Assembly: GCA_949935795.1 (NCBI GenBank)
Contig: CATLFX010000024.1
Span: 1-38,969 of the forward strand
DNA from: an uncultured Oscillospiraceae bacterium
GTDB lineage: Bacteria; Bacillota; Clostridia; Oscillospirales; Oscillospiraceae
Direction of reading: 5' to 3'
DNA: 38,969 nucleotides
This document shows, in pieces, positions 8,650 through 25,772 of this stretch. Numbering within the stretch: the stretch's first letter is position 1; each line of letters opens with the position of its first letter. The translations under genes were made by a program, and so were the position numbers. The notes under the pieces are model-generated. The model saw only the letters and a program-made list of their open reading frames with translations. It made no database searches and had not been told where the DNA came from.

Positions 8650-8690
8650 AAAAAAGGACCAGGGCGTCCAGCCGGACGCCCTGGTCTTTT
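8650..8690 (-). terminator. intrinsic terminator closing the phage-derived island
   Basis: A perfect 13-bp stem (8657-8669 with 8674-8686) around AGCC. On the minus strand it is followed by CCTTTTTTG, on the plus strand by TCTTTT, so it can work both ways. It lies about 45 bp beyond the 3' end of the LamG gene, and marks the left edge of the island's transcription next to the polA promoter. Confidence 0.85.
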
Positions 8691-8732: not shown

Positions 8733-11700
8733 TTAAAATGGAAGCCACTGGGGTCCCGCCGTGTCGTCCAGATAATAGCGGAGGAGCGGCGAACAGCGCT
8801 CATTGCTTATACAAGGGTAGTCCCGGAGATTCCATTTGTTGGAAGAGGACTCCAGGATCAGCCTGCGCGTATCCGATACGCCGCCGGCAAATTGAGCCGG
8901 AATCAGAAGCGGCACGGCGGAAAGGCGAATCAGGGGGCGGAGCGGGAGCTGTTTTGTAAAAACATTATAGTAATAGGGCCGCAGGGCTTTGATGCGCTCC
9001 ACATCGTCAGAGTTAAACAAGTAAAACCCGGAAAATTGTAATGGAGCATTTAAAAAAGTATCGTCAGGGAGATCTTCAGCAGCCATTGGATTATCATAGG
9101 CGGCGTCGATCCTGGAAACTCCACTCATGAACGGCCGGAAGGGAACGGTAATGTGTACCCACTCGGCGGGGTCGAAGCTGTCCTGAAGGCTGGAGTTCCA
9201 GTCAGACATACCGGGACGGAGGTTGTTCTTTGAATTGTTCAAGGCCGAGAGCAGCAGATTCGCCTCTTTTGCGGCTTGTTCAAAATCCTCATAGTTCCCG
9301 GGATCGGAAAGAAGCTGGATCTTTTCCCATGCCACTTGCTGGAACTTGTCCTCAAACTCCCCTGTGGAATTCCTCGTCACTGCCAGCCAAATGGCACTCA
9401 TGATTTGCGCGAACTGCTCAGGCAGATACGTCCCTGAGTGAAGGCCGTTGACCATTTGTACCACAGCGTTCTCAATCGACTTGTAGCTGATGCTGTGGCA
9501 GCGCACCAGATAGGGCGGCAGCGGTATCGCTTGCGTAATGTAACTGTCGAACTTGGGGCGTCCCGGCCCCGACTCCAATACCGATTCGCCGGGTTCGCCG
9601 GGTTTGACGGTCTGGGGCGGCAGACGCTCCAGCCAGAGCCAGGAAACCGTCAGGGTCACCTCGCAGGTGCTCCCCGGCTGGCAGAGCAGGGTGCGGTACT
9701 GCCCATTGTCCGGGCCGGAGATCATGTCCATGTTCTGGTTTGGCGCGGAAAAAGCCATGCCGGAAATGGCGGCCGGCTTCCCCTCGGAGGACCGCAGGGT
9801 GAGAAAGCCGTCCCAGATGTCCGGGGGGGCCTTCTCATGCGGAATGCCGCATACGTGGTAGTTGTCAAGGAAAACGAATTCATCGTCCTCCGCCGCGCCG
9901 GTCCGCCGCGCCGGGCGCAGGTACAGGGAGGCGCCCTCCCGCATGGAGCCAAGGCGGAACAGGCGGAGCTTTTCAAGGCCCTCCAGCCTGGTGAACGCGT
10001 AGTGGAGGCTGGCACAGTCCAGCGCGCCCACCTGGGCCTTGCCGTTTTGCAGGGCCGTGACACAGCCCTTGATGTCAAAGGCCAGCACCCGCTGCTCATC
10101 CATCCCCCAGGCCGCGTATTTTGAGCCGCCGGCCCAGGGCAGGGCCTCCAGCTTCCCGCCGCCATGGCTCCAGGAGACGAACTGCCCCGCAAACCGCCGG
10201 TCCGGGTCTTTCTCGGAGCTGTTTTCCCCCGCAATGAGATGGCACAGGGAAATGGCCGGGTAGACCGGTGGGTATTTGGAATCGCGCTCCGTGGTCCAGG
10301 GGGACAGCGGTTTTGCGGCCAGCACATGGATGGTGTGGTCTGTTTTGCCCACCAGCTTTTCGCCGGCGCCGGGGGAGGAGACCTGCCATTGCCAGCGGAT
10401 TTTGAAGGCGCCCAGGCCGGCCGTCTTCAGCTTGTGTTCCGGCAGCGGAAGGGTGACGGAGTAATCGCCTGTGGCGGCAATCGTGACGCTGCCGGAAGAC
10501 GGCGCCCCCAGTACGCTGTCCAGGCCGCTGCCCTCCATGCAGAAGGCCTGGAAGGAAAGGGTCAGCGGGTCCTTGCATTTTTTGTCGCAGTAGAAAGACA
10601 GAATCACCGAAGGCGTCTGATCCGACGGAATGTCCCGGTGGTAAAGCACCGGGGCGGAGTTGACGCGACTTTCTGTTTTGCTCCACTCCGGCAGCACGGG
10701 GGCGGCCCCAAAATCCGGGACGCCAAACAGGGCTCCGGCCTTCAGGCTTTCCTCATGATAGAAGCTCAGGCTTTTGAAGGTCACGGCATAGTCCCCGCTG
10801 GTGCAGGTGCCGGGGTCGGGGGCGGGCTTTTCTTCCACGCGCTTGGCCGCTGCCGCCGCTCCGCCGGCCAGGACGCCGCCAATTACGGGCCAATTGGAAG
10901 CCCGCCAGGACATCCGGAAAAAGCGGAGAAAGCGCCGGACCCACATAATGCGGCGCAGGCCGCCATTTTGTGCGGACATATAAAATCCGTAGCAGACGGC
11001 GCCGGCAAAAGCGCCAAACATAATGGCCTCTAAAAGTTCTCCCATATCCTCGCCGGAAATTTTTCCGCTGGACGCGAGGCCGCTGACCCGGGGGTCGGAT
11101 GAGACATACTGCGCGACCATCACGGCCATAGACCCGTTGAGCTGGTCGTTCCCGGGATCTGAGAAGCCGCTGCTCGGCTCCATGCCCGTCAGCGATTCAA
11201 TGCCCTGGAGGACGGCCTCCGCCGCCACCCGGGTCTCCCACGTCTCCGTCTCGTCCATTCCGGTGAGGGAGTCCGGCATATAAAAGGCGAGCGCGGGAGG
11301 CTCCCGGTCCAGCACCGTGTTTTCCTGCGGAGCGCTCCCCATCATGCCGCCGGAATAGGTGAGCCCGGCGCCGCTGACCACCTCCATCGGATACTGGTCG
11401 GAGAACAGCCACAGCGCGGCCAGGTGCTCTTCAAAGCGGTAGGGAGGCACACCGGCATAGGCTTTCAGCTTTGGGGCGGGCAGGGCCGCGTCAAAGACGG
11501 CCACCATGTCAATGCAGCCCCGGAATCCCCGGGCCATCTGCCCGTTCTCATCCTGATTGCCGATCATCAGCGCCGGGGCCTCCGTGCGGGCAAAGGGCTG
11601 GGCCAGCGTCCCCGTCCCGGCGGGCTCGCCGTCCACGTAGAGGGAGACGTCCGTCCCCTTGACCACGGCGGCGATCTGATACCAGCTGTAATTGTTCAGC

Positions 11701-12500
11701 GCCGTGGAAAAGGGGAACCGGGTTTCGCCCAGGGTGAGGAAGGGCTTGCCCGTATCCCCCGTCAGCCCCAGGGCCACCGTCTGCTTCCCGCCGTGTGCGC
11801 CGTTGGTGAAAATGACGGTGTCCGAATCACTGGGCGAGGCGTTGGCCGCGGCCTGCCGGTCCTCCGCAGACAGCTCTTTGGGGAACACGGCGGCCAGCAG
11901 CGTGAGCCCGCCGGAGGCCAGCGCGCCGGGATTTACCTGTCCGGACCCATAGGGCAGGGCAAAGCCGTTCCGGCCCGGGGCAAAGCTGTACACCAGGTTC
12001 ACGGCGGCGCAGCCGCCCTTGAGCTGCAAGGGGAGGGCGTGGCGGCCCCGGTCTGTCGGGCTGAAGGCGTCAAAGTCGGCCCACAGCTCGGTCTGCTCGG
12101 CGGGGACCTCGTGGGTGAATTGCAGATGGAGGACCTCTTCCGCCGTCAGCGCCCTGCTGTACAGGACCGCCTCCTGAAGGTAGCCGTCCATGGCCCCCAG
12201 GCGCCAGCGGGTCTCCTGGTCGATGTGCTCCGCGCCTGCGGCCCCGGCCTCCAGGGCCAGCAGCCCCTGTACATAGACGCGCACCGCGGCCCCGTCGTAG
12301 ACCACGTCGGCCCGGCACCACTCGTCCTCCAGCAGCTTGGGCTCCATGCCGGGGTCCGTGCGGAAGCTGCCCAGGTTTTTGGCCTCAAAGTAGACGCTGC
12401 CATTATTCACGCCGAAGGAGAAAACGCCCTCCTGCTGGATCAGGATATTGTCGTCCCCCTTGTGGGGGTACAGGAACGAGGCCCCCAGGGTAAAGGGCAT
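8733..12500 (-). CDS. giant LamG/concanavalin-like domain protein, 5' end frameshifted
   Basis: The open frame gives 1,255 residues. Two laminin-G/concanavalin-like jellyroll modules are visible (about 1-140 and 185-355), each ending in the family pattern of a length-preserving AVLYSRALTAEEV-type or VAVFDAALPAPKL segment. Two hydrophobic stretches follow near 490-510 and 535-552 with Arg-rich sequence between them, then about 700 residues of beta-rich sequence I do not recognise. The true start is probably the ATG at 12597, which has GGAGG upstream and overlaps the Hint stop as ATGA. That frame is off by one base at the C8 tract 12528-12535. With one C fewer the protein would be 1,287 residues. 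It lies where tail-fibre genes normally sit, so glycan or receptor binding is a reasonable inference. A phase-variable or broken gene are both possible. Confidence 0.75.
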   Translation of the reverse strand: MPFTLGASFLYPHKGDDNILIQQEGVFSFGVNNGSVYFEAKNLGSFRTDPGMEPKLLEDEWCRADVVYDGAAVRVYVQGLLALEAGAAGAEHIDQETRWRLGAMDGYLQEAVLYSRALTAEEVLHLQFTHEVPAEQTELWADFDAFSPTDRGRHALPLQLKGGCAAVNLVYSFAPGRNGFALPYGSGQVNPGALASGGLTLLAAVFPKELSAEDRQAAANASPSDSDTVIFTNGAHGGKQTVALGLTGDTGKPFLTLGETRFPFSTALNNYSWYQIAAVVKGTDVSLYVDGEPAGTGTLAQPFARTEAPALMIGNQDENGQMARGFRGCIDMVAVFDAALPAPKLKAYAGVPPYRFEEHLAALWLFSDQYPMEVVSGAGLTYSGGMMGSAPQENTVLDREPPALAFYMPDSLTGMDETETWETRVAAEAVLQGIESLTGMEPSSGFSDPGNDQLNGSMAVMVAQYVSSDPRVSGLASSGKISGEDMGELLEAIMFGAFAGAVCYGFYMSAQNGGLRRIMWVRRFLRFFRMSWRASNWPVIGGVLAGGAAAAAKRVEEKPAPDPGTCTSGDYAVTFKSLSFYHEESLKAGALFGVPDFGAAPVLPEWSKTESRVNSAPVLYHRDIPSDQTPSVILSFYCDKKCKDPLTLSFQAFCMEGSGLDSVLGAPSSGSVTIAATGDYSVTLPLPEHKLKTAGLGAFKIRWQWQVSSPGAGEKLVGKTDHTIHVLAAKPLSPWTTERDSKYPPVYPAISLCHLIAGENSSEKDPDRRFAGQFVSWSHGGGKLEALPWAGGSKYAAWGMDEQRVLAFDIKGCVTALQNGKAQVGALDCASLHYAFTRLEGLEKLRLFRLGSMREGASLYLRPARRTGAAEDDEFVFLDNYHVCGIPHEKAPPDIWDGFLTLRSSEGKPAAISGMAFSAPNQNMDMISGPDNGQYRTLLCQPGSTCEVTLTVSWLWLERLPPQTVKPGEPGESVLESGPGRPKFDSYITQAIPLPPYLVRCHSISYKSIENAVVQMVNGLHSGTYLPEQFAQIMSAIWLAVTRNSTGEFEDKFQQVAWEKIQLLSDPGNYEDFEQAAKEANLLLSALNNSKNNLRPGMSDWNSSLQDSFDPAEWVHITVPFRPFMSGVSRIDAAYDNPMAAEDLPDDTFLNAPLQFSGFYLFNSDDVERIKALRPYYYNVFTKQLPLRPLIRLSAVPLLIPAQFAGGVSDTRRLILESSSNKWNLRDYPCISNERCSPLLRYYLDDTAGPQWLPF

Positions 12501-12597
12501 TCCCCCGCAGAGGGAGATCCCGGGGACGGGGGGGGATCTCGGCCCAGTAGCCGTGCTGGCATTTCAGGGCGAAAAAGCTGCGGTTTTGAACGCTCAT
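12501..12597 (-). other. 5' segment of the LamG gene, out of frame
   Basis: Starting at the ATG 12597 the sequence encodes MSVQNRSFFALKCQHGYW and further residues, then meets the C8 tract. As written the frame ends at 12403 after 64 residues. Dropping one C joins it smoothly to the long LamG frame. The start has a strong GGAGG site and is coupled to the upstream Hint gene through ATGA at 12594-12597. This is therefore the natural N-terminus rather than a separate small gene. Confidence 0.7.
12528..12535 (-). repeat. C8 homopolymer at the LamG frame break
   Basis: Eight consecutive G on the plus strand (C in the coding strand) lie 62-69 bases after the start codon of the LamG gene, exactly where the two reading frames separate. 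Seven (or ten) C would restore the frame. Slipped-strand mispairing in such tracts is a known basis of phase variation in surface proteins. A sequencing or assembly error at the homopolymer is the main alternative. Confidence 0.7.
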
Positions 12598-14093
12598 GTC
12601 AAAATTTCCTCCCACAGCGCACGCTTTTGCGCGGTCTCCTCCCGGTGGGGATTGACCGCGAAGGGCTCCTCCTGGACGATGCCCAGGGCGCCCTGCATCC
12701 CATTGTCGCCCACCAGAACGCGCTCCGCAAACATGGTGCAGCCCCCCTCCGGCGGCCGCTGGGCCCCCTCCGGCCTGAGCACCAGGTTATAGATCTCGCC
12801 GCCCGGGGTGTCCCAAATGCCGATGACCGTCACGTGCCCGCCATCCGGCGTGCACAGGCGGCAGTTGCCGTGGACGTCCACGGCCTTCATCGTCCCCCGG
12901 TCCGTCACAATGGGGTGGTCCTGGGTGCAGACCAGCGTGCGGCCCCCCAGCATCTGAATGTTGACCATGCTGCGCGGCTCGTTTCCTCCGACGGCCTTGT
13001 CCACAACGGCCCGGTTCCCCTGGGCGTCCATGCGGACCACGTCCCCCGCCTTGATCTGCTCAATGGGCCGCTCCGTGCCGTCCGCCATCAGGATGCGGGT
13101 CCCGGGGGCGAGGCATCCCCAGACCAAATTCAGCCATCCGGCGACAGCGCTCCCGGAGTCCTTTTTCGCGGCCTCCGACAGGTCGCTGCCGATCTGGATG
13201 GTTCCCTCCCTGCCGCTTTTGAGCTTAAAATTCACGGCAAAGAAGAAATCCACGCGGTCCCGGATGGGCCAGCGGCGGGAGGGGACGTCGTCCATCCACT
13301 CGGGATTCAGGCTGAAGCTGAACCCGTTGGGGTGGGTCCCTTCCGCATCCGGCTGCGCGACGAAATGCTTCTCAATGGGCTTCTCCCGCCCCGTCTTGGT
13401 ATATGTGGACAATCCATGCTTGCAGTCCATTTTCAAAACGAACGTGGTGATGTCGATGTGGTCAAACTGCTCCTCCGTGCCCTCCTGGAACTCCACCCAT
13501 GCGGAGAGCGGGGCGAAGAGCCGCTGCTTCCCGGTGCTGGGGTTGAAGGAGCTCTGGTAGCGGTAATCCACCTCTTCACTGGGCAGGAAGTCCCGGTTGT
13601 ACGCGATGTTGATGGGATATTCCGTCCCTGCACGCTTCACCGGCGCCTCGAGGTGGACCTCCTTGACGGCGCTGTTGAGGTAGACCTGGCGGTGTACGTC
13701 CCGGCTGCTCATCAGCGCCCGGAGCCGTCCGGTATTCGCCTCGCACCAGGTGGCCGTGTAGTCGATCTCCAGGATGTCGGATTTGAACTTGGCGGGGTCA
13801 AATTCGGTGTCCAGCGTCAGCACCGTATGGTGGGAATCGGAGGCGGACTGGGCGCAGCCGTCTACGGACTCTCCGGCGGAGGTTCGTATTTCCAGGTATT
13901 CGTCAATAAAGAGGGCCGTTTCCGGCAGAGAGGTGACGGCCCGCACGGAGAGCTGATTTCCGTTTCTCTGCCAGTGCACGCCCTCCACTTCCGCGCCCGA
14001 GACGAAATCGCCGCCCCTGGCAAGGGGAGGGGGCGGGTCCTGGAGGGTCGCCGCATAGGTTTGATGGAGGGCGGGAAGCCGCTGCCGGATCAT
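12594..14093 (-). CDS. Hint (Hedgehog/intein) domain protein
   Basis: A 499-residue protein. Residues 1-320 are beta-rich with no family I recognise. Residues ~324-470 form a Hint self-processing domain: catalytic Cys at the start of block A (CLAPGTRILMADGTERPIEQ), block B TQDHPI, a GEIYNLVL strand, and the terminal block MFAERVLVGDNGMQ. The Asn plus nucleophile pair needed for full protein splicing is not seen, so self-cleavage rather than splicing is likely. Its stop overlaps the LamG start (ATGA), so the two are translationally coupled. The ATG at 14093 has only a weak binding site. An open, coding-looking frame extends about 110 bases further upstream without an ATG/GTG/TTG, so the N-terminus may be shortened. 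Hint domains are common in polymorphic toxins and surface proteins. Confidence 0.8.
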   Translation of the reverse strand: MIRQRLPALHQTYAATLQDPPPPLARGGDFVSGAEVEGVHWQRNGNQLSVRAVTSLPETALFIDEYLEIRTSAGESVDGCAQSASDSHHTVLTLDTEFDPAKFKSDILEIDYTATWCEANTGRLRALMSSRDVHRQVYLNSAVKEVHLEAPVKRAGTEYPINIAYNRDFLPSEEVDYRYQSSFNPSTGKQRLFAPLSAWVEFQEGTEEQFDHIDITTFVLKMDCKHGLSTYTKTGREKPIEKHFVAQPDAEGTHPNGFSFSLNPEWMDDVPSRRWPIRDRVDFFFAVNFKLKSGREGTIQIGSDLSEAAKKDSGSAVAGWLNLVWGCLAPGTRILMADGTERPIEQIKAGDVVRMDAQGNRAVVDKAVGGNEPRSMVNIQMLGGRTLVCTQDHPIVTDRGTMKAVDVHGNCRLCTPDGGHVTVIGIWDTPGGEIYNLVLRPEGAQRPPEGGCTMFAERVLVGDNGMQGALGIVQEEPFAVNPHREETAQKRALWEEILT

Positions 14094-14221
14094 TTCTTCG
14101 CCGCCGTAGAGGGAGAGCAGCCATTCCCGCTGCTGTGGATTTTGAAGGTCCAGTTCTAAAGCTTTGCGCCTGAAATCATTGTACGGCAGCTCTCCGGGCC
14201 GCGCAAGTGGTTATTAAACTC

Positions 14222-14251
14222 ATTTCGGAATTTTTAATTATTTTCCGAAAT
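14222..14251. promoter_or_regulatory. AT-rich inverted repeat, operator candidate
   Basis: ATTTCGGAA at 14222-14230 and its exact complement TTCCGAAAT at 14243-14251 flank a 12-nt AT-only spacer. It lies about 130 bp upstream of the Hint start and downstream of the tail-operon terminator. This is the expected place for a regulator site controlling the cassette separately. No regulator gene is nearby. Confidence 0.45.
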
Positions 14252-14332
14252 TTCCACTTGAGCGGAACACAAAAAGGATATTCGCCGTTGCAATTCTGAG
14301 CGGGTACGGCGCGGCCTTGGCCGAGGCCGCGT

Positions 14333-14365
14333 AAAAACGGACAGCAGGCTTTCATCTGCTGTCCG
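14333..14365 (-). terminator. terminator of the head-tail operon
   Basis: A perfect 10-bp stem (14338-14347 with 14356-14365) with an 8-nt loop. On the minus strand it is followed by five T (14333-14337). It lies about 150 bp beyond the last baseplate gene, and ends the structural operon before the Hint-LamG cassette. Confidence 0.85.
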
Positions 14366-14460
14366 AGAAACATTTGATATTTTTCTGTCCTCTTGGCGGG
14401 GCGCGGGATAATACCACATCGTCAGCCGGATTGAATCGAATATAGCCGAACCCTGCACCC

Positions 14461-14491
14461 GCCGCCTGCATATCGCTTGCGGCGGCTTTTT
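14461..14491 (+). terminator. possible plus-strand hairpin with T5
   Basis: GCCGCC (14461-14466) and GGCGGC (14481-14486) form an inverted repeat followed by five T on the plus strand. No plus-strand gene lies upstream, so it may block antisense transcription or be a relic. Confidence 0.35.
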
Positions 14492-14516
14492 CAAAGTAAC
14501 GCGCCCGGGTGTCCGC

Positions 14517-15113
14517 TCACTCGATATCTTCCAGATAGCCGTCGTTCTCGATGGCCAGCCCGTACCAGCTCAGTCCGGTGTCCGCCGCGTCTCCGAAGGT
14601 GGGGTGGCGGCTGGCTACCATGGCCCAGGTGTTGTACCAGAACACATAGGTGATGTCCAGGTGGCTGGGCAGGATTTCCTCAATGATGATCCGCAGCTGG
14701 TCAAAGCCCTCGGGGATACCGGCCACGTCGGGGAAATAGACCTTCACATATCCCGGCTGGCCGGTCTCCTCGGCCCGTGCGTTGAGGCCGCACCCCCGCA
14801 GGGTGTCGTTAATGGCCTCGGGAGTAAAGCTGTCGCCGCTGATGCGCAGCAGGGCGGCCAGGGCCTTCCGTCGCTGCTGTATGGTGGCGCACACCGGCCG
14901 GTAGGGCAGCAGGGCCTCCACCCGCTCCAGGCCGAAATCGCTGGCGGTGGTCAGATTCATCTCCCGGGCGGTGTGGTCCAGCTCCTCCATGGCCCCGTCC
15001 AGCGCCCCGCCGTAAGCGGCCAGCTCGCCCCTGTTGATGGTTCCTGGGCGCAGGTCGTACACCCCCAGGGGGCGCAGCAGGGAGACCAGATAGTCCTCAA
15101 ATTTCAGTGTCAT
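14517..15113 (-). CDS. XkdU/YmfQ-like baseplate protein (DUF2313)
   Basis: A 198-residue protein of the P2 gpI / PBSX XkdU type, which caps the baseplate wedge and links to tail fibres in myoviruses. Visible family traits are the N-terminal DYLVSLLRPLGVYDL, the middle segment on the grading of R-rich repeats (PVCATIQQRRKALAALLRIS) and the VKVYFPDVAG strand followed by an EEILPSHLDITYVFWYNTW C-terminus. Its start overlaps the stop of the baseplate J gene by four bases (ATGA). It is the last gene of the structural operon. The usual tail-fibre gene is replaced by the Hint-LamG cassette. Confidence 0.85.
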   Translation of the reverse strand: MTLKFEDYLVSLLRPLGVYDLRPGTINRGELAAYGGALDGAMEELDHTAREMNLTTASDFGLERVEALLPYRPVCATIQQRRKALAALLRISGDSFTPEAINDTLRGCGLNARAEETGQPGYVKVYFPDVAGIPEGFDQLRIIIEEILPSHLDITYVFWYNTWAMVASRHPTFGDAADTGLSWYGLAIENDGYLEDIE

Positions 15114-16237
15114 CCGCCGTCACCGCCGCTCTGCGCAGTTCCGCCCGCAGCCTCCGCCTCCTGGGAATTCTCCGGGAGGGGAGCCGCGCCGTTTTCAATG
15201 GTCAGCGCCCCCAGCACCGGCAGGGTGACATTGCTGAGGGGCAGATCGGCCGCGGGACTGACCAGCTGGCAGTTGGCCACCCCGTCCACGGCGTAGATCA
15301 GCGAGATGAGCTGAGCCCGGGGCAGGGGCTGGCCCAGCCGCTCCCCGTTGAACCAATCCTCCAGCCTGTCCCGCACCGCCCCGGCCGCCGCGTCAAAGCT
15401 CCAACCCTCCCTGGCCCACAGCTTGACGGACACATCCACCGCCGTCACCGTGGGGGAGAGCACCTTCACGTCGCAGGCGATCTCCCGCACCCGGTTGAAG
15501 TGGTCCTGGAGGGCGTTCAGCAGCTCCTGGCTGGGGATGCCTCCCTGGGCGGCGGGGACCACGTCCACCGTGCCCACCCCCCGGTTCCGGGGGAGCACCG
15601 TCACCGCGGCCACCCCGTCGAAGGACATGGTGGCCTGGCGGTAGAAGGCGTTGTTGGCCCCGTTGGCCAGCCGCTGGAAGGTGGCCAGCACCCGCTGGCG
15701 CAGCGCCTCGTCCCCCTCCTGGTCCTGGCCGTTGGAGAGGGCCTCCGGATTGGCGCAGGCCGCCACCCCCAAGGGGGGGAGGGCCATGTACACAATGGCG
15801 CCCTGTCCCACGTTGCCCGCCGCCCCGGCCTCCGCCGCGATGACTGGAACCTCGCAGTACGCTTCTCCCGCCGGGATGACCCCGGCCGCGGCGGTGAGGA
15901 ACCGCACCCCGCCGGCGGTCATGCACACGGTGTCCTTGGGCACCTCCGTATCGGTATCCCTGGCCTCGCCCACATAGAACCGCACCGTGCCGTTTGCTTT
16001 TATGGCGTTTCTTCGGGTCAGCCCCCGCAGCTTGGCGTGTTTGTCCAGGTCCTCGCCCTGGGCGGTCTGGGGGAAGCACTGCCGCCGGGTCCACTCCGCC
16101 TGGACATACAGGCTGTAAATCTGAGCGGCCACGGCGTAAAACCGCACGGCCAGCTCGCTGCTTCCTCCGGCGGACTGGCCGGTCTGGGCCTGGAATTCCG
16201 AGGCCAGGCCCTGATAAATTTCCTCCAATGTAATCAA
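15110..16237 (-). CDS. baseplate J-like protein (XkdT type)
   Basis: A 375-residue protein of the baseplate J/gp47 family, close to PBSX XkdT in length. It forms the wedge around the spike in contractile tails. Family features include the N-terminal ITLEEIYQGLASEFQ region, RGLTRRNAIKANGTVRFY, the GEAYCEVPVIAAEAGAAGN block and the long central repeat of GDEALRQRVLATFQ. It is placed between a gp25-like and an XkdU-like gene, as in PBSX and P2. No truncation is seen. Confidence 0.92.
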   Translation of the reverse strand: MITLEEIYQGLASEFQAQTGQSAGGSSELAVRFYAVAAQIYSLYVQAEWTRRQCFPQTAQGEDLDKHAKLRGLTRRNAIKANGTVRFYVGEARDTDTEVPKDTVCMTAGGVRFLTAAAGVIPAGEAYCEVPVIAAEAGAAGNVGQGAIVYMALPPLGVAACANPEALSNGQDQEGDEALRQRVLATFQRLANGANNAFYRQATMSFDGVAAVTVLPRNRGVGTVDVVPAAQGGIPSQELLNALQDHFNRVREIACDVKVLSPTVTAVDVSVKLWAREGWSFDAAAGAVRDRLEDWFNGERLGQPLPRAQLISLIYAVDGVANCQLVSPAADLPLSNVTLPVLGALTIENGAAPLPENSQEAEAAGGTAQSGGDGG

Positions 16238-16241
16238 ACGC

Positions 16242-16592
16242 TCACTCCTCCCAGCGGGCGGTCACCGACAGCGCCTCGCCCTGCCACAGCAGGTCCGCCG
16301 TGACCAGCAGTGCGTCCCGGTCCCGGCGGACGCTGGCCCCGGTGACGGTGACGTCCTCCAGATCATCCAGCGCCTCCACCGCGAATTGGCGGGCCAGCGC
16401 GTCCCAGCCGGAGGGTTTTTCCCGCCGCAGCTCCCCCATCCGGCTGCCCAGCCGGGGCAGGAAGGGGAAGCTTCCCCGGCGGGCGGTGAGGCGGAACAGC
16501 GCCTCGTTCAGCAGGGCCTCGCCCCCCGACGCCACAGCTACTCCGCCGTTTCCGTCCCGCACATAGTCTCTGTTCTTCAACAGCAGGCTCAT
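16242..16592 (-). CDS. gp25/gpW-like baseplate protein (XkdS type)
   Basis: A 116-residue protein in the T4 gp25 / P2 gpW position, a wedge component that initiates sheath assembly. The conserved LPRLGSRMGELRREKP segment with its Arg-Glu pair lies near residues 45-60, and the C-terminal strand VTADLLWQGEALSVTARW is typical. It is five bases from the baseplate J gene and 10 bases from the spike gene. Confidence 0.85.
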   Translation of the reverse strand: MSLLLKNRDYVRDGNGGVAVASGGEALLNEALFRLTARRGSFPFLPRLGSRMGELRREKPSGWDALARQFAVEALDDLEDVTVTGASVRRDRDALLVTADLLWQGEALSVTARWEE

Positions 16593-16602
16593 CTCATCCT
16601 CC

Positions 16603-17025
16603 TTAGCCCAGGCCGCCCAGAATCATCAGCACGATTCTGATAATCAGCTCTTCCAGCGTCTCCTCTTTCACATACACCTGTCCCATCAGGCGGATGTTTT
16701 CCCCCTCTGCGGTGACATCGCCCGGGGACTTGACCGTCACAGTTTCCCCCTCCAGGGTGAGCTCCTTGGCCTTGATACCCACCTGGTCGGGGACCTGGCT
16801 TCCCTGGAGGGCCCCCGCCACGCAGGGGATCTCCCCCCGGCCCTGGATGACCAGCACCTTGCTGTCCACCTTGGGGGTCCAGGTGTAGCCTCCGGGGCTG
16901 TAAATTTGCAGCCCCCGGCGCTCACAGTCCAGCAGGGCGGCGGTCTCCTTACCGCTCATGGTGATGACGCCCACCTGGCCCTCGCCCTGGTCGGCGGGCC
17001 GTTTGTGCTGTCCGCTCAGCCACAT
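16603..17025 (-). CDS. baseplate spike/hub protein (gpV/XkdR-like)
   Basis: A 140-residue protein with an N-terminal OB-like segment (GQVGVITMSGKETAALLDC), a short beta-repeat region (ELTLEGETVTVKSPGDV then GENIRLMGQVYVK) consistent with a beta-helix tip, and a hydrophobic Ile/Leu-rich C-terminus. Position between the hub (XkdQ-like) and gp25-like genes matches the spike of PBSX/P2-like tails. It starts at ATG 17025 after GGGAGG. The assignment rests partly on gene order. Confidence 0.65.
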   Translation of the reverse strand: MWLSGQHKRPADQGEGQVGVITMSGKETAALLDCERRGLQIYSPGGYTWTPKVDSKVLVIQGRGEIPCVAGALQGSQVPDQVGIKAKELTLEGETVTVKSPGDVTAEGENIRLMGQVYVKEETLEELIIRIVLMILGGLG

Positions 17026-17040
17026 GATTAAAACCTCCCA

Positions 17041-17994
17041 CTAAATCATCGCATCTGTCTCACCCAGCACCAAAGTGGTGGTCAGCCCTCCGGCCCCGCA
17101 GGCCACCTCGGTCTGGGCGGCCCGGTAGCGCCCGTTGGCCCCGCAGCCTTTCAGATCCACCGACACCAGGTCTCCCGGCCAGGCCAGGAATCCCCCGGCC
17201 ACAGTGAGGCGCATCCGCACCCGTTCCCGGCGGGCGGCCCGGAGCTGGTAGTCTGCGGTGTAACGCATGGCGGCGGAGCCGGTGGTGTTGGGCACGGTGA
17301 TGACCCGCCGGGCGCAGCCCCCCTGGGCCACAAACGCGGGGTCGGACACCCACTGGGTCCCCCGGGCGGTCCGCCGCCGCACCGCCGCCTGGCTCAGCAC
17401 CCCATGGCGCTCCTCCCGGTACTCCCAGCCGGTGACGGGGTCCGCGCTTCCCACCAGCACCTCCCGGCTGTCGTTGGGCGGGTTCAGTACCAGCCGCCCC
17501 ATCCGGTCGAACCGGGGCACCACCCCGCCGTAGTAGCAGGCGAACCGCCGCACCACGCTCCACTCGCTCTCCCCGCTGGACACGGTAAACCCGGCCACAG
17601 CGGGCAGTGTGCCGCCGCCCACCGCCTCCACGCCGTAGGGTGCCACATGGCCGGACACGATGTCGGCGCGGGTGGCCCGCTGGTACTCGGCGGGCAGGGC
17701 CTCGTTGTCCAGCAGCAGGGCGGCCATCCCCCGGCCGGACATCTCCAAATACAGCCCGTCTTTTCCGCAGATGACGGCGTACTCGTCCACCACTCCGGTG
17801 AACACCCGCTCCCCCTCCCACTCCGCGAAGAACCGGCAGGCGGCGGAGAGGGTTTTTTCCTGCCCCCGCTCCCACAGGCACCGCAGGAAGAAGCTGTCGC
17901 AGGGGGTGTCGGTGCCGTAGCAGAATTTCCAGCTGACGGCGGTGGGCAGATTCAGCTCCCCGCCGCCCCCCAGCCTGACCCAGCACCGCATCAT
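17041..17994 (-). CDS. XkdQ/gpD-like tail hub protein
   Basis: A 317-residue protein of the XkdQ/YqbQ type, the tail hub related to T4 gp27 and P2 gpD. It has the early YGTDTPCDSFFLRC strand, FTGVVDEYAVICGKDGLYLE, the SGRGMAALLLDNEALP segment that is highly characteristic of the family, and a C-terminal domain with GDLVSVDLKGC. The start at ATG 17994 overlaps the LysM gene stop (ATGA). A longer open frame to 18225 exists but is only overlap with the LysM gene. It works with the LysM protein to close the distal tail tube. Confidence 0.88.
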   Translation of the reverse strand: MMRCWVRLGGGGELNLPTAVSWKFCYGTDTPCDSFFLRCLWERGQEKTLSAACRFFAEWEGERVFTGVVDEYAVICGKDGLYLEMSGRGMAALLLDNEALPAEYQRATRADIVSGHVAPYGVEAVGGGTLPAVAGFTVSSGESEWSVVRRFACYYGGVVPRFDRMGRLVLNPPNDSREVLVGSADPVTGWEYREERHGVLSQAAVRRRTARGTQWVSDPAFVAQGGCARRVITVPNTTGSAAMRYTADYQLRAARRERVRMRLTVAGGFLAWPGDLVSVDLKGCGANGRYRAAQTEVACGAGGLTTTLVLGETDAMI

Positions 17995-18575
17995 CTGAGC
18001 CTCACCTTCTGTCCCGGATAGATGAGGTTTGGGTTGCGGATGGAGGGGTTGAGCTCCACGATCCGGTTCAGCGCCACTCCGTACCGCCGGGCCAGCTCCC
18101 ACAGGGTGTCTCCCCGGACCACGGTGTGGTACAAGGCCTGTTCCTCTTTTGCCGCGGGGGCCTCGCCCCCTGTATCGGGCTGGTCCAGGGGCCGGGTGGA
18201 CAGCGTGGGCTGGCCCGCGCCCCACTCCACCTCCCAGAACTCGAAGGAGTAGGCCACATAGTCCCGCCGGGGGGCCTGCCGCAGTTCCAGGGCGGCGAAC
18301 CAGGCGTTGGTGGTCATCCAGACCGGGTGGACCAGCATTCCCGGCGTCTCCTCATAGAACACGTTGGCCAGCTGCTTGAAGATGTCGTAGGCCCGCTGGC
18401 CCACGAACTCCCCCTCTCCCCGGAGCACCCGCCGGGTCTGTCCCAGGCTCTGCAAATAGTGCAGGCCGAAGGGGATTTTATGCACCGCCAGTTTCCGTTC
18501 AAAGGCGATGGTATACACCCTGGGGTTGTGGGGCCACACGAAGCCCTTGAACCGCATGGGTGAAAGGATAGCCAT
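17991..18575 (-). CDS. LysM-domain tail protein (XkdP/gpX-like)
   Basis: A 194-residue protein. The N-terminal 120 residues match the XkdP-type tail protein that sits between tape measure and hub. The C-terminal ~45 residues form a LysM domain (HTVVRGDTLWELARRYG then LNPSIRNPNLIYPGQKVRLR). LysM domains bind peptidoglycan, but in contractile tails this module mainly holds the hub. It is joined to the hub gene by ATGA overlap, so the two are probably translated at a fixed ratio. Confidence 0.9.
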   Translation of the reverse strand: MAILSPMRFKGFVWPHNPRVYTIAFERKLAVHKIPFGLHYLQSLGQTRRVLRGEGEFVGQRAYDIFKQLANVFYEETPGMLVHPVWMTTNAWFAALELRQAPRRDYVAYSFEFWEVEWGAGQPTLSTRPLDQPDTGGEAPAAKEEQALYHTVVRGDTLWELARRYGVALNRIVELNPSIRNPNLIYPGQKVRLR

Positions 18576-18588
18576 ATCGCACCCCTCC

Positions 18589-19266
18589 TCAAAAGATGTC
18601 CAGCCCGCCGTCGTATCTGCGGCTGTCCCGGCGGACGGCCCGGTCCAGCTCGTCCACGGTGAGCTGCCGGGGCGTTTCCGGCTCTCCCAGCCGGACGGCC
18701 TGTCCCTGCCGGGGGGCGGCGGGGGCCTGGGCGGCGGGCCGCGCGGCCCGAACGGCCTGCCGGTACAGCCCTTCCAGCCCCCGTTCCGCCGGCTGTAGGG
18801 AGGCAGTCACGATGTCCGCCGCCGGAGGACCGTCTTCCGCCCTGGCATTGGGCAGTTCCGCCAGCTCCAAATCTCCGTCCCCCGGTCTTCTCAGCAGAGG
18901 GGTCCCGTTGGACCCCGTCACGATTATTTCCAGCCCATCCCGCCCAATTTTCGCCGGAGCAGGCTCCGCCGGGGCTGTCTCGGGCATTGCGCTGTCTGCC
19001 GGACCGCCTCCGCTGGGAATTTCTCCCCAATACTCCGGCGGGGGGACAGCCTCCGCCGCCCATTCTTGTATTTCCACATCTGGCGGGCGGTTTCCCGTTT
19101 CTGCCGGGACCGGGGTTTCCGCCGTCTCCTCCTTTTGAGGCCCGCCCTCCGGTTCCGCCCCGGGCGGGGGAGGGGCGGGGACCTGGGTTCCCGGCCTCAG
19201 CTCCAGCGCGTCTCTCTGCTCATCCCCGTCCTGCTGGTCCTCCACCAGCTCCAGCAATTCCTCCAC
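18589..19266 (-). CDS. short Pro/Ala/Glu-rich protein in the tape-measure position
   Basis: A 225-residue protein rich in Pro, Ala and Glu. It has an acidic N-terminus (EELLELVEDQQDGDEQRD) and a basic C-terminus ending in DELDRAVRRDSRRYDGGLDIF-like sequence. It occupies the slot between tail chaperone and LysM gene where PBSX and P2 carry the tape-measure gene, which is usually 600-1,300 residues. No coiled-coil array or hydrophobic segment typical of tape measures is visible. Either the tail is extremely short or this is a different component. It starts at GTG 19266 with no clear binding site, two bases after the chaperone stop, so coupling is likely. Function not recognised. Confidence 0.6.
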   Translation of the reverse strand: MEELLELVEDQQDGDEQRDALELRPGTQVPAPPPPGAEPEGGPQKEETAETPVPAETGNRPPDVEIQEWAAEAVPPPEYWGEIPSGGGPADSAMPETAPAEPAPAKIGRDGLEIIVTGSNGTPLLRRPGDGDLELAELPNARAEDGPPAADIVTASLQPAERGLEGLYRQAVRAARPAAQAPAAPRQGQAVRLGEPETPRQLTVDELDRAVRRDSRRYDGGLDIF

Positions 19267-19270
19267 ACGG

Positions 19271-19561
19271 TCAACCAGCGTCCCCGCCCCCCTTCAGCGC
19301 CTGGTATCTGGCCCAGTCAAATCCCCCGTTGACGGCCCAGCTCTCTCTGGGCGCGCCGCACACGGGGCAGGGCTCCTCCTCCGCCCGCCGGCGGCAGTCG
19401 GGGCACAGCCTGGAAAGCTCCTCCTCCTGGTCCAGGGCCAGGTTGAGGGCGCACCACAGGTAATCCCGGTCGGTCATGTTTTTCGCCCGCTCCTCGGTGG
19501 GCAGAGCGCCGAACAGGCGGAGCACGCGCCATTGAAGGCGCTCATAAGGCGCGTGCTCCAA
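19271..19561 (-). CDS. tail chaperone extension made by -1 frameshift
   Basis: This 96-residue frame has no good independent start (only TTG at 19561, without a binding site) but lies in the -1 frame of the chaperone gene and begins right after its slippery A7. A -1 shift would give a 207-residue fusion: 110 residues from the first frame plus 97 from this one. The extension has a possible zinc ribbon (CPDC then CPVC, eight residues apart). It corresponds to the G-T or E-E' products of lambda and P2, needed for tape-measure-dependent tail assembly. The extension ends two bases after the next gene's upstream region begins. Confidence 0.8.
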   Translation of the reverse strand: MEHAPYERLQWRVLRLFGALPTEERAKNMTDRDYLWCALNLALDQEEELSRLCPDCRRRAEEEPCPVCGAPRESWAVNGGFDWARYQALKGGGDAG

Positions 19562-19893
19562 GCTTTTTTTCGCCGTTGGATCTCCTCTTCCCCATCCAGG
19601 GCGGAGGGGTTGCAGTCCCGGTTGAAGGCGGCCCAGGCGTTGGCCAGCCGGGCGATGTCCTCCACCCGCATAGCGTCCAAAACGGCCTGTCCGTTCTCAA
19701 AGGCGGGCCTGCCCTTCCGCTCCAGGGCCCTGGCGATGAGGCAGGCGTTGCGGCACAGGGCCCGCTCCCGGCCGTCCTGGGCCAGGGCGTCCCCCTCCCG
19801 CCGGGCCTCCAGCACCTCCCGGGCGGACAGCAGCCGCAGCTCGCCCCCGCCCACCTTGATGCGGTCCGGGCCGGTCCAAAATCCCAGGTCCAT
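19474..19893 (-). CDS. tail assembly chaperone (XkdN/gpE-like)
   Basis: A 139-residue protein immediately after the tube gene (TAA and ATG adjoin). Its place between tube and tape-measure slot and its partner frame identify it as the short form of the tail assembly chaperone. The N-terminal strand region WTGPDRIKVGGGELRLLSARE is followed by an Arg/Ala-rich helical body. Most ribosomes would read on to the stop at 19474. A fraction would slip at 19564-19570 and make the longer form. The zero-frame tail after the slip (residues 111-139) is Cys/Ser-rich with no obvious fold, consistent with a by-product of the overlap. Confidence 0.8.
   Translation of the reverse strand: MDLGFWTGPDRIKVGGGELRLLSAREVLEARREGDALAQDGRERALCRNACLIARALERKGRPAFENGQAVLDAMRVEDIARLANAWAAFNRDCNPSALDGEEEIQRRKKAWSTRLMSAFNGACSACSALCPPRSGRKT
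19519..19570 (-). promoter_or_regulatory. programmed -1 ribosomal frameshift signal
   Basis: Reading the minus strand, seven A (19570-19564) form the heptamer A-AAA-AAA in register with the chaperone codons (CGA AAA AAA GCT). After a four-base spacer (GCTT) comes a perfect 12-bp stem, GGAGCACGCGCC (19559-19548) with GGCGCGTGCTCC (19530-19519), and a 17-nt loop. The spacer is close to the 5-7 nt usual for stimulatory hairpins. Frame arithmetic confirms that the slip enters the 19271-19561 frame. Confidence 0.85.
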
Positions 19894-20307
19894 TTACACC
19901 GCCATCTCCATCCGGCGTCCGGCCACCAGCGTGAGCTTTTCCACCACCATTTTTCCCAGCTGGGCGTCCTCCTGGATGTCGCTCCACTGGCAGTCGGAGT
20001 AAATGACCTTGCGGTCGGGCTTGCAGATGACCAGGGAGAAATTGCGCATTTTGTAGAAGTCCAGCCCGTCGGCGATGGCCTGGTCGGTGGCGTAGAGCCT
20101 GGTGAGCTGGATGACGTAGCTCTGGGGTCCCTGGACGGTGGCCACGGGCTCCTCCTCGCCGAAAGCCTCCACGGAGTAGGAGCTGCGGGTGGCCTTACAG
20201 TTATAGCTCTGCACCACGGCCACCTTCTGCCCGTCCAGCTCCAGCCAGATATCGGAGCTGGTGGGGAACCCTGCGGCCCGCAGCCCCGCGTTGATCGTTG
20301 TATTCAA
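19894..20307 (-). CDS. tail tube protein (XkdM-like)
   Basis: A 137-residue protein with the compact size of contractile-tail tube subunits (PBSX XkdM, P2 FII). It has the N-terminal AGFPTSSDIWLELDG strand pair, FGEEEPVATVQGPQSYVIQLTRL and a C-terminal beta region (GKMVVEKLTLVAGRRMEM). It starts at TTG 20307 supported by AGGAGGG six bases upstream. It follows the sheath gene after a 68-bp gap containing no other feature and abuts the chaperone gene, the standard order of this tail type. Confidence 0.92.
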   Translation of the reverse strand: MNTTINAGLRAAGFPTSSDIWLELDGQKVAVVQSYNCKATRSSYSVEAFGEEEPVATVQGPQSYVIQLTRLYATDQAIADGLDFYKMRNFSLVICKPDRKVIYSDCQWSDIQEDAQLGKMVVEKLTLVAGRRMEMAV

Positions 20308-20375
20308 AAAATCCCTCCTAAACTCTTTTCACTTCCATCCGCATTCCGCTTACAAGAAAAAGAACACCACAAGAA

Positions 20376-21410
20376 CTATACCGTGATATGGGCGGACAGC
20401 CACACCTGGTTGAGGCCGTGGGCCACGGTAAAGGCGAACTCCACCAGGCACACGGTGGGGTCGCTTTCCAGGGCGGACACAGTCACGTCCTCGTAGCCGT
20501 CGATGATCTCCCGGCTGACCCGTTTTTCCAGCTCCATCACCACCAGGGAGCGGATAGCGCCCCGGCTCTGGACGGTGTTTTTGGCCCGGCCGAACTTGGC
20601 CCGCAGGGCGTTGCGGATGCCGGGAATGACCTCATCCACCACCAGGATGGTGGTGAGCTCCCGCCAGGTGGGGTCCACCGCGCCGCCGGTTTTGGTTCGA
20701 GTAGTGACGCCCCGCACCACGTAGCAGGACCCGGCCAGGGTCTCCAGGGGGGTGACGCCGCCCTGGACCAGCAGGTCGATGTCGCCGTCGTCGTAATTGG
20801 CCTCCAGCCCCTCCAGTCCGTAGAGCTGCGCGCCGCCCAGGGGGAGGGCGGGGTCGGAGCTTCCGGCGATGGCCCCGGCCACGGCGGCGGCGCACAGGGC
20901 TCCGCCGGAGCCGTCCCCGGCGCCGGGGGCTGTCAGCACCATCCGTTCGCTGCCGAGCCCCGACGCCCGCTGGACGAGCTGGGCGACGGTCTCTTCGGCC
21001 CCGCCGCCCACCACGGCGATGCGCTCCCGCCGGGCGGCGGAGCACTCCTGCACCGCCGTTTTCAGCGCCTGCTGGACGGACAGCTCGGTGCTGTCGCACA
21101 CCACCACGTCCACATCCTCCAGCGCCGCCATCACGGCGAAAGCGCCGTCATAGTCCTCTCCGGCGGGGATGCCGTACACCACTCCCGCGCCGTTGCGGAT
21201 GGCCAGCTGGGCCATCCGGCTGAGGAGGCAGTCGCCCACATCGGCCGCGGCTCTGCTGAAGCTGGTCCACTGGTAGTATTTTTCCAGCCCGGTTTTTTCC
21301 AGTTTCGCCACCACCGCCACATTGCCGCCTCCGGCAGCGGCGGCGGTGAGGCTGGATGCCTCGTAGGAGGAATACACCCCCGGTCTCTCATGCCTGGTCA
21401 CCGCGTTCAT
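20376..21410 (-). CDS. contractile tail sheath protein
   Basis: A 344-residue sheath subunit, shorter than PBSX XkdK (~466). It has the N-terminal RPGVYSSYEA segment typical of sheath proteins, a glycine-rich alternating domain in the middle (AAAVAGAIAGSSDPALPLGG), and the highly conserved C-terminal core: TLAGSCYVVRGVTTRTKTGG, WRELTTILVVDEVIPGIRNAL, and the final GLNQVWLSAHITV handle strand that links neighbouring subunits. Its presence makes this a contractile (myovirus or tailocin) tail. The start overlaps the tail terminator gene stop by ATGA. Confidence 0.95.
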   Translation of the reverse strand: MNAVTRHERPGVYSSYEASSLTAAAAGGGNVAVVAKLEKTGLEKYYQWTSFSRAAADVGDCLLSRMAQLAIRNGAGVVYGIPAGEDYDGAFAVMAALEDVDVVVCDSTELSVQQALKTAVQECSAARRERIAVVGGGAEETVAQLVQRASGLGSERMVLTAPGAGDGSGGALCAAAVAGAIAGSSDPALPLGGAQLYGLEGLEANYDDGDIDLLVQGGVTPLETLAGSCYVVRGVTTRTKTGGAVDPTWRELTTILVVDEVIPGIRNALRAKFGRAKNTVQSRGAIRSLVVMELEKRVSREIIDGYEDVTVSALESDPTVCLVEFAFTVAHGLNQVWLSAHITV

Positions 21411-21907
21411 GTCACTCTTCCTTTCACTTCAAAGTCTGTAAAGAAGCCTGTCTCGCTGTCCACCCGGGCGGTGAGCCAGGCCCCGCACCTGCATAGGAGC
21501 TCCTGCCGGTACAGCCCGTCCTTCTCCAGAAATTGGACCCTGTCCGCCCGGACCTCCAAGGCGGTCAATCCCGCCGCACCTTGGCAGACCAGGGCCTCCA
21601 AAATAGCGTCGGCCGCCTGCTGGCAGGCCTCGCCGCCCCCGTCCCTGGGGGCAAAGACGTCCAGCGCCAGGGTAAGCTCCGCCTCCTGGCCGTAGACCTC
21701 CCGTTCCGCACCGTCCGGCCCCTTCTGTACGCCCAAATAGTTCTGGAACCCGCCGGGGGCGCATGTTACCTTACTGAGGGCCACGGCGGCCACGGCCTCC
21801 CGCCACCGGGGGGCCCGCTGGCAGTCCATGGCGGTGACGGCGTTGAGGCCGTTTTTCCGCAGCTGGTCGGCCACCCCGTCCCGCCACGCGCTCAGTGCCC
21901 CGGTCAA
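21407..21907 (-). CDS. tail terminator/completion protein
   Basis: A 166-residue protein preceding the sheath gene, in the slot of the PBSX YqbJ-like or lambda gpU-like tail terminator that caps the tube-sheath at the neck. No strong motif is visible. The beta-rich centre (QEAELTLALDVFAPRDGG) and the C-terminal QELLCRCGAWLTARVDSETG match the general style of these proteins. The long open frame to 22222 overlaps the previous gene, so TTG at 21907, which overlaps that gene's stop as TTGA and has GGGGAGA upstream, is chosen as start. Assignment is by context and size. Confidence 0.65.
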   Translation of the reverse strand: MTGALSAWRDGVADQLRKNGLNAVTAMDCQRAPRWREAVAAVALSKVTCAPGGFQNYLGVQKGPDGAEREVYGQEAELTLALDVFAPRDGGGEACQQAADAILEALVCQGAAGLTALEVRADRVQFLEKDGLYRQELLCRCGAWLTARVDSETGFFTDFEVKGRVT

Positions 21908-22239
21908 GGCGTGTTCTCCCCGCAGGGCCGCAGGGCCAGCCACAGGTGGGTGACCTGACCGCCCACCCAGATGGGCCGCACGGTCATCACCTCGTATTTT
22001 TGACCGCCCCATTCCAGCCAGCCTCCCGGTCCGATTTTGTCCAGGGGCAGCGCCGGATCGGCCAGCCCCAGAAAGCGGTCCTGGGAGTAGCTGCCCAGGG
22101 CCCCGGCAGTGTACTGCCAGTCCGCACGGGTCATGGGCTGGACGATGGCCATGCCCCGGCCTGTCTCCTGGCCGTCCTCCCGGCGGCACACCATCTCCTG
22201 CCCATAGGTCCGAATGACCCACTCAAACGCCTGAATCAA
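21904..22239 (-). CDS. head closure (neck stopper) protein
   Basis: A 111-residue, beta-rich protein (GPGGWLEWGGQKYEVMTVRPI near residue 75) in the position of SPP1 gp16/YqbH-type head-closure proteins. It starts at TTG 22239 overlapping the previous stop (TTGA) and ends inside the next start in the same way. No catalytic motif. Assignment rests on place, size and the WxGxxYxV pattern. Confidence 0.65.
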   Translation of the reverse strand: MIQAFEWVIRTYGQEMVCRREDGQETGRGMAIVQPMTRADWQYTAGALGSYSQDRFLGLADPALPLDKIGPGGWLEWGGQKYEVMTVRPIWVGGQVTHLWLALRPCGENTP

Positions 22240-22589
22240 CCTTCCACCCCCCGAAATACAAATCCCTCATCCTTAAAATAGGGGACCATCAGCTCCATCG
22301 CCTTCCGCGCCAGTCTGCCGCCCTCTCCGCCGCCAGCCTCCCGGCGCACCGAGATATCCCCCGCCGACAGGGCGGTGACGCCTTCCAGTCCCTGGCTTTC
22401 CCGCAGCCAGTCCATCACCAGCCACGCCGCCGCCAGGGGGTATGCCCCCTGGCAGTCCTCCGCCGTCAGCCCGTCCTTGAGCCGCCGGTCCAGGGTCCGG
22501 CAGGCAACGGCGCACAGGGTGTTCAGCAGTTCCTCATCCTGGCCCGCGCCCCCCAGGGCCTGTACCAGCTCCATCACCTGTTCCGTCAT
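22236..22589 (-). CDS. head-tail connector (gp6/YqbG-like)
   Basis: A 117-residue mostly helical protein (two N-terminal helices around NTLCAVACRTLDRRLKDG and YPLAAAWLVMDWLRES, ending in FKDEGFVFRGVEG). Helical proteins of this size directly after the head genes form the adaptor ring under the portal (HK97 gp6, SPP1 gp15). Start at ATG 22589, ten bases after the protease gene. It is the first of three overlapping neck genes. Confidence 0.68.
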   Translation of the reverse strand: MTEQVMELVQALGGAGQDEELLNTLCAVACRTLDRRLKDGLTAEDCQGAYPLAAAWLVMDWLRESQGLEGVTALSAGDISVRREAGGGEGGRLARKAMELMVPYFKDEGFVFRGVEG

Positions 22590-22599
22590 GGCTGTCCTC

Positions 22600-25613: not shown

Positions 25614-25772
25614 CAATAGCTCCTCCTTTGTATGTCCGTTTTGTTGTCACGCTGCGCCTGTTCGCGACGCGCGGTTTCCCTCCGCCTCGGCCTGGTCTCC
25701 GGCCCGCTGCGCGGGCCTGCGCTCGGCCTCGCTCCGGTCCATCCGCGCTGCTCACGACGGCTCCGCGCTTCT
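25614..25772. repeat. GC-rich intergenic segment, possible interspersed repeat
   Basis: A 159-bp gap between decoration and capsid genes. Except for the capsid ribosome binding site at its left end, it holds GC-rich near-palindromic words (GCCCGCTGCGCGGGC at 25700-25714, and repeated CGCGC/CTCGG blocks). It resembles 1-100 and 5641-5770, and is unlike the tight spacing elsewhere in the operon. This suggests insertion of a scattered repeat. Confidence 0.35.

What the first reader, a model, noticed from the sequence alone, without database searches (positions are those of the whole stretch)
12501..12597. C8 tract splits the LamG gene from its own start: candidate phase-variable switch
The ATG at 12597 has a strong GGAGG and is coupled to the Hint gene by ATGA, yet its frame leaves the 1,255-residue LamG frame exactly at a run of eight C. 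One C less restores one 1,287-residue protein. Homopolymer tracts near the 5' end of surface or receptor-binding genes are a known on/off device. Here it would switch the putative binding protein of a contractile particle.
Basis: partly seen in the sequence, partly recalled or inferred. Interest (0 to 1): 0.75.

Follow-up and report, generated by a model that had tools for sequence, protein, structure and literature searches.

The report
Frameshifted LamG gene beside a prophage
In one assembled bacterial genome a run of eight C appears to put the start of a large LamG-domain gene out of frame with its body; this is more likely an ordinary slippage mutation in a neighbouring accessory gene than an evolved on/off switch of a phage-like particle, and only raw reads or further strains can settle it.

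Summary
A C8 run (12528-12535, - strand) lies between an ATG at 12597, overlapping the Hint gene's stop, and the 1,255-codon LamG ORF (ATG 12500). The ATG frame ends after 64 codons. Two relatives support 12597 as the original start: their Hint-LamG pairs have an overlapping or adjacent start, a continuous frame, 32 (G269) and 34 or 39 (G307) codons before the matching point (32.3 here), and no C/G run above 5. The switch reading is weak: of 21 non-artefact C/G runs of 8 or more in this genome, 10 lie in frame in genes such as ATP synthase, IF-3 and TruB, 10 are unclear, and only this one changes frame with both 60-nt flanks scoring as coding. The proposed target is doubtful too: a terminator-like hairpin separates the pair from the tail operon; in 19 of 19 congeneric loci with enough sequence the same element runs into mreB, without Hint, LamG or polA; and no relative of the element was found near the two relatives' pairs. 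Most likely: a slippage frameshift in an accessory gene (0.5). Rivals: phase variation (0.25), assembly error (0.12), recoding (0.06), genuine start at 12500 (0.05).

The parts
12594..14093 (-). Hint-domain gene, 499 aa; its stop overlaps the ATG at 12597
   Evidence: weak Pfam Hint-type hits and intein_Nterm 1e-4, all below curated cut-offs; profile relatives in G307, G269, G223
12608..12612 (-). GGAGG ribosome-binding-site-like motif, 10 nt before ATG 12597
12403..12597 (-). 64-codon frame from the coupled ATG; the codons before the tract are the probable N-terminus of the LamG protein
   Evidence: position in relatives
12528..12535 (-). C8 homopolymer tract at the probable frame break
12514..12540 (.). 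Perfect 8-bp inverted repeat; the tract lies in one arm and the loop
   Evidence: such repeats are common in the window, so not remarkable alone
8733..12500 (-). LamG ORF, 1,255 aa, without the N-terminal segment that relatives have
14338..14365 (-). Terminator-like hairpin (10-bp stem plus T run) between gp48 and the Hint gene
8657..8686 (-). Terminator-like hairpin (13-bp stem plus T run) after the LamG ORF, before polA

Best explanation
The Hint gene and the LamG gene form an accessory two-gene unit bounded by its own terminators. The LamG gene starts at 12597, coupled to the Hint stop. In the assembled sequence a one-position length change, most likely polymerase slippage in the C run, puts that start out of frame. 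Ribosomes entering at 12597 stop after 64 codons. The LamG ORF could then be reached only from ATG 12500, which has no properly spaced ribosome-binding site and would give a protein without its N-terminal segment. I take this as a recent, strain-level loss-of-expression mutation and not an evolved switch. Shown: the frames, the overlap, the relatives' continuous frames, the terminator-like hairpins, the tract census. Inferred: slippage as the cause, loss of expression, recency (the 1,255 downstream codons are still open).
For: Relatives G307 and G269: Hint followed by LamG with overlapping or adjacent start, continuous frame, no C/G run above 5. Start to matching residue: 32 codons in G269, 39 (GTG, overlapping) or 34 (ATG, 11 nt past the Hint stop) in G307, 32.3 in the window. 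Library profiles made without the window place the first LamG domain's beginning inside that segment: Laminin_G_3 from residue 18 of G269, phrog_3545 from residue 24 of G307; the window's ATG 12500 corresponds to residues 33 and 40. Codon usage changes frame. Census, 60-nt flanks: 10 of 21 non-artefact runs of 8 or more score positive in one frame on both sides, 1 of 21 (this one) scores positive on both sides in different frames, 10 of 21 unclear; the 10 match Pfam families, mostly housekeeping enzymes.
Against: No reads, strains or orthologues at this site, so mutation and switch cannot be told apart directly. Only two alignable relatives, both of one other genus and 23-24% identical. Similarity of the N-terminal piece is not significant by itself (6,728 and 14,121 of 20,000 shuffles score as well). 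The profile that the window ORF enters at position 23 was built from these same three sequences, so that figure is partly by construction. With 120- and 240-nt flanks the right side of this tract no longer scores positive, because the Hint gene's own frame begins there.
Confidence: 0.5

Rival explanations
1. Phase-variable contingency locus: slipped-strand mispairing at the C tract reversibly turns the LamG protein on and off; the assembly caught the off state.
For: Tract within the first 70 nt of the gene, large frame kept open downstream, LamG domain suggests binding. In N. meningitidis, tracts of 8 or more nt were predominantly variable (PMC5084427, passages seen).
Against: Tract absent in both alignable relatives. 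Ten other runs of 8 or more lie in frame in genes such as ATP synthase alpha/beta family, IF-3, TruB, PPDK, so such runs are no marker of switching here. No signal peptide is evident by eye in either protein (no predictor was run).
Confidence: 0.25
2. Assembly or sequencing error: the true tract length keeps the frame.
For: Draft assembly (70 contigs, 69.7% complete); one contig has a run of 84 C near its start, an evident artefact.
Against: Ten other C/G runs of 8 or more are in frame, so error at such runs is not general. The 84-C run resembles a short-read chemistry artefact, and short reads seldom misjudge a run of 8 (both recalled).
Confidence: 0.12
3. Recoding: +1 ribosomal frameshifting at CCC_C, or RNA polymerase slippage, makes some full-length protein from the C8 mRNA.
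For: Listeria phage PSA uses +1 shifts on a proline codon in capsid and tail genes (PMC5009743, passages seen).
Against: No stop codon follows at the site; RNA folding is not unusual (z -0.45, 56 of 200 shuffles fold as well); relatives are continuous, so no conserved shift site.
Confidence: 0.06
4. The LamG gene really starts at 12500 and the 64-codon frame is a leader or chance ORF.
For: ATG present with G-rich sequence just before it; the N-terminal piece alone is not significantly similar to relatives.
Against: GGGGGA abuts the ATG with no spacing; relatives have 32 to 39 more N-terminal residues in which the first LamG domain begins and an overlapping or adjacent start; the upstream frame has coding composition.
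Confidence: 0.05

Closest known systems
Homopolymer (SSR) contingency loci, as in Neisseria meningitidis (PMC5084427, passages seen)
   Same: Mononucleotide G/C tract near the 5' end of a gene; length sets the frame
   Different: No variation shown; tract absent in relatives; runs of the same length in this genome sit in frame in housekeeping genes
+1 frameshifting at a proline codon in Listeria phage PSA (PMC5009743, passages seen)
   Same: CCC followed by C in the zero frame, downstream protein in the +1 frame
   Different: No stop codon or unusual structure at the site; relatives need no shift
Frameshifted accessory genes (strain-level pseudogenes); recalled, not searched
   Same: Single-position frame break, otherwise open gene, patchy distribution
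   Different: Nothing found that sets it apart

Membership tests
SSR phase-variable locus | Mononucleotide tract inside or near the 5' end of the gene, length setting the frame | tested here: met
SSR phase-variable locus | Length polymorphism within a population or among strains | not testable with these tools
   no reads; one genome per species; in 41 congeners only three short partial LamG matches, none covering the tract; no relative in the viral, phage and genome collections searched
SSR phase-variable locus | Tract kept in homologues | tested here: not met
   0 of 2 alignable relatives; longest C/G run 5 in the first 160 nt
SSR phase-variable locus | Genome uses such tracts at surface or contingency genes | tested here: not met
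   10 of 21 tracts in frame, mostly in housekeeping genes; 10 of 21 unclear, so partial
Programmed +1 frameshift site | Stimulator: stop or slow codon, or RNA structure | tested here: not met
   z -0.45; no stop at the site; codon slowness not tested
Programmed +1 frameshift site | Shift site conserved | tested here: not met
   relatives continuous
Receptor-binding protein of the contractile element | Kept as part of the element in related genomes | tested here: not met
   Hint and LamG in 0 of 20 congeneric loci; mreB follows gp48 in 19 of 19 with enough sequence
Receptor-binding protein of the contractile element | In the tail operon | tested here: inconclusive
   same strand, but a terminator-like hairpin with a 10-bp stem intervenes; transcription not measured
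LamG (Laminin_G_3) proteins | Pfam gathering score | tested here: met
   89.3 bits against 27.6
Hint/intein proteins | Curated score cut-off | tested here: not met
   22.7 against 32.1, Pfam Hom_end_hint; 23.2 against 24.5, TIGR01445; the relative in G269 does reach Vint, 33.8 against 27

The most novel reading that the evidence does not exclude
A rare Hint-LamG two-gene cassette has acquired a C tract that reversibly switches the LamG partner: a homopolymer contingency locus in a lineage where I recall none being described, with the Hint protein made constantly and its partner only in some cells.
Probability: 0.2. Interest if true: 0.5.

Novelty: new member of a known kind. Interest (0 to 1): 0.2.

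Why it matters
If it were a switch it would be a contingency locus controlling a candidate binding protein in a lineage not known to me for such loci. As the evidence stands it mainly corrects two inferences: the gene very probably starts at 12597, and the LamG gene is a neighbour of the widely kept contractile element and not a component of it.

Tried and rejected
Searches for close relatives of the LamG ORF. In 42 genomes of the genus: the window's own genome plus three short partial matches (G010 and G025, 32-33% over residues 972-1116; G018, 30% over 237-366), none covering the tract. Peptide-pattern scans of viral and genome contigs: none. tblastn in phage records: none. DNA patterns of 18 and 19 bases fetched 33 loci; tblastn at E 0.01 found one match, 18 residues of the N-terminal piece in L027 at 0.006, which the search pattern itself forces, so I count it as chance.

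Wider searches, our own genome counted where present: Hint protein 6 of 300; Hint profile 4 of 400 in the family, 5 of 295 in the order, 4 of 34 and 1 of 25 in two genera, 3 of 391 in the class; LamG profile 3 of 400. The Hint profile also hit 67 viral loci, nearly all over the Hint domain alone; these were not followed. G712 and G713 look by eye like inteins in helicase-like genes. G779 was fetched and not pursued; G944 was not fetched. G466 has a Hint gene overlapping a large ORF but no detectable LamG similarity, and G223's contig shows no LamG after its Hint gene; neither was counted as an alignable relative.

N-terminal piece similarity: not significant. Structure prediction of LamG residues 560-1255: mean pLDDT 33, not used. 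RNA structure as stimulator: not unusual. A first tract census mixed the two strands' sides and was replaced; there L148 and L151 are also flagged as frame changes at 60 nt, and L147, L148, L151, L160 at 120 nt, each with at least one side scoring negative, so I put them under unclear. Inverted repeat at the tract: the window holds 46 nested hits against 10-21 in ten Markov samples, so not special. A C..H..D pattern of papain/transglutaminase type was seen by eye; Pfam gave no such family at E up to 1. PADLOC gave only three weak hits, E 0.004 to 0.03. In one search, weak phrog hits of G269's Hint domain to terminase and head families were taken as inteins in those families.

Full report
What is there. 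The window is one whole contig (C24) of a 2.24-Mb, 70-contig assembly, 69.7% complete. On the - strand it carries a contractile-phage-like gene set: terminase, portal, major head protein, sheath, baseplate hub, baseplate J and gp48. Then, after a 423-nt gap, come a 499-aa Hint gene (12594-14093), the LamG ORF (8733-12500, 1,255 aa) and polA. The C8 tract, the ATG at 12597 overlapping the Hint stop, and the GGAGG are as described. From ATG 12597 the frame stops after 64 codons. The LamG frame has no ATG, GTG or TTG between its upstream stop at 12564-12566 and ATG 12500.

Is the gene really broken? Four lines say that 12597 is the original start. First, position: in G269 the LamG ATG overlaps the Hint stop by 8 nt; in G307 a GTG overlaps it by 4 nt and an ATG follows 15 nt after the GTG. 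Both frames are continuous. From start to the residue matching the window's ATG 12500 there are 32 codons in G269 and 39 (GTG) or 34 (ATG) in G307, against 32.3 in the window. Second, library profiles made without the window put the beginning of the first LamG domain in that segment: Laminin_G_3 from residue 18 in G269, phrog_3545 from residue 24 in G307, while ATG 12500 corresponds to residues 33 and 40. Third, the three-sequence profile is entered at position 23 by the window ORF but at 3 and 1 by the relatives, partly by construction. Fourth, codon usage favours the ATG frame before the tract and the LamG frame after ATG 12500. Against: the N-terminal piece alone is not significantly similar to the relatives, the 9 codons between tract and ATG 12500 are undecided, and both relatives belong to one genus.

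Is it a switch? The finding named as refutation relatives with no tract and a continuous frame. That is what the 2 of 2 alignable relatives show: longest C or G run 5 in their first 160 nt. A census of C/G runs of 8 or more in the genome gives 22, one being an 84-base artefact near a contig start. Of the other 21, with 60-nt flanks, 10 score positive in one frame on both sides, 1 (this one) scores positive on both sides in different frames, and 10 are unclear. With longer flanks the right side of this tract scores negative, as it then reaches into the Hint gene's other frame. The 10 in-frame ones match Pfam families: ATP synthase alpha/beta, Sel1 repeats, UxaC, CobS, polyprenyl synthetase, PPDK, IF-3, TruB, GntR-aminotransferase, heparinase-like. 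So such runs do not mark contingency genes here, and the assembly does not generally mis-call them. In N. meningitidis tracts of 8 or more were predominantly variable (PMC5084427, passages seen), so instability of this tract is plausible; but in-frame runs of the same length in housekeeping genes show that length alone does not make a switch.

Is the target a particle protein? Baseplate J of the same element matches in 32 of 42 genomes of the genus including our own: in 30 of the other 41 at 60-80% identity (five of these with stop codons counted inside the match) and in one, G030, only weakly. I fetched 20 loci out of the 31 other genomes with a match. In 19 of 19 with enough sequence, gp48 is followed on the same strand, 608-1,091 nt on, by mreB; the twentieth (L200) has only 235 nt. 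Hint, LamG and polA are in none of the 20. In 19 congeneric polA loci neither Hint nor LamG is found within the 1.5 kb held on each side. In the window a terminator-like hairpin with a 10-bp stem lies between gp48 and the Hint gene and one with a 13-bp stem after LamG. Around the relatives' pairs (19.0 kb in G307; 19.0 and 18.0 kb in G269) none of 12 genes of the window's element has a tblastn match at E 0.001; a scan of all neighbours for other phage genes was not done. In G307 the neighbours include spoVT- and sigma-factor-like genes; in G269 an integrase lies about 4.5 kb away. LamG next to the particle is thus peculiar to this genome among those seen, a rearrangement or possibly a contig join, and no reason to call LamG the particle's binding protein.

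Alternatives. Recoding would need a +1 shift at CCC_C. Listeria phage PSA does this on a proline codon before a pseudoknot or a stop (PMC5009743, passages seen), but here there is no stop, no unusual structure and no conservation. Assembly error remains possible. A genuine start at 12500 is disfavoured.

Conclusion. A real feature of the assembled sequence, most simply a slippage frameshift in an accessory gene; the switch is possible but unproved, and its link to the contractile particle is unlikely. A literature search for phase variation, tail fiber, prophage and homopolymeric together gave 4 papers (listing only), by title and abstract start on Campylobacter and Salmonella. A search for at least three of Hint domain, LamG, transglutaminase and polymorphic toxin gave none.

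Noticed in passing
14517-27687 and loci L183-L202: The contractile tail element ends beside mreB in 19 of 19 congeneric loci with enough sequence, and its baseplate J is found in 32 of 42 genomes: it looks like a vertically inherited, possibly domesticated phage-like particle.
   Followed up: partly
14094-14516: In this genome the element's mreB flank is replaced by Hint-LamG-polA; the gap has no blastn similarity to the 20 congeneric loci. Rearrangement or chimeric contig.
   Followed up: partly
18226-20375: Between the sheath and hub genes no - strand ORF exceeds 249 aa, and the 225-aa ORF 18589-19266 matches no PHROG: no long tape-measure gene is evident, which would mean a very short tail.
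   Followed up: partly
L019:10487-15522, L020:6098-10667, L139:6605-10703: A Hint gene overlapping or abutting a large downstream gene recurs in G307 and G269 (with LamG) and G466 (without detectable LamG), with none of 12 genes of the window's element nearby: a rare two-gene module of unknown role.
   Followed up: partly
LamG ORF, about residues 800-960 (about 9620-10100): By eye, a C..H..D pattern as in papain/transglutaminase-like enzymes, shared with G307 and G269; not confirmed by Pfam.
   Followed up: partly
G000:C7:26-109: A run of 84 C near the start of the contig, an assembly or read artefact.
   Followed up: no
12514-12540: Perfect 8-bp inverted repeat with the C tract in arm and loop; may favour slippage or be chance.
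   Followed up: partly
L020:5340-6068: The gene just before the Hint gene in G269 matches a TRADD-N-associated two-transmembrane domain (PF20712, 3.4e-16), a domain I recall from conflict systems.
   Followed up: no
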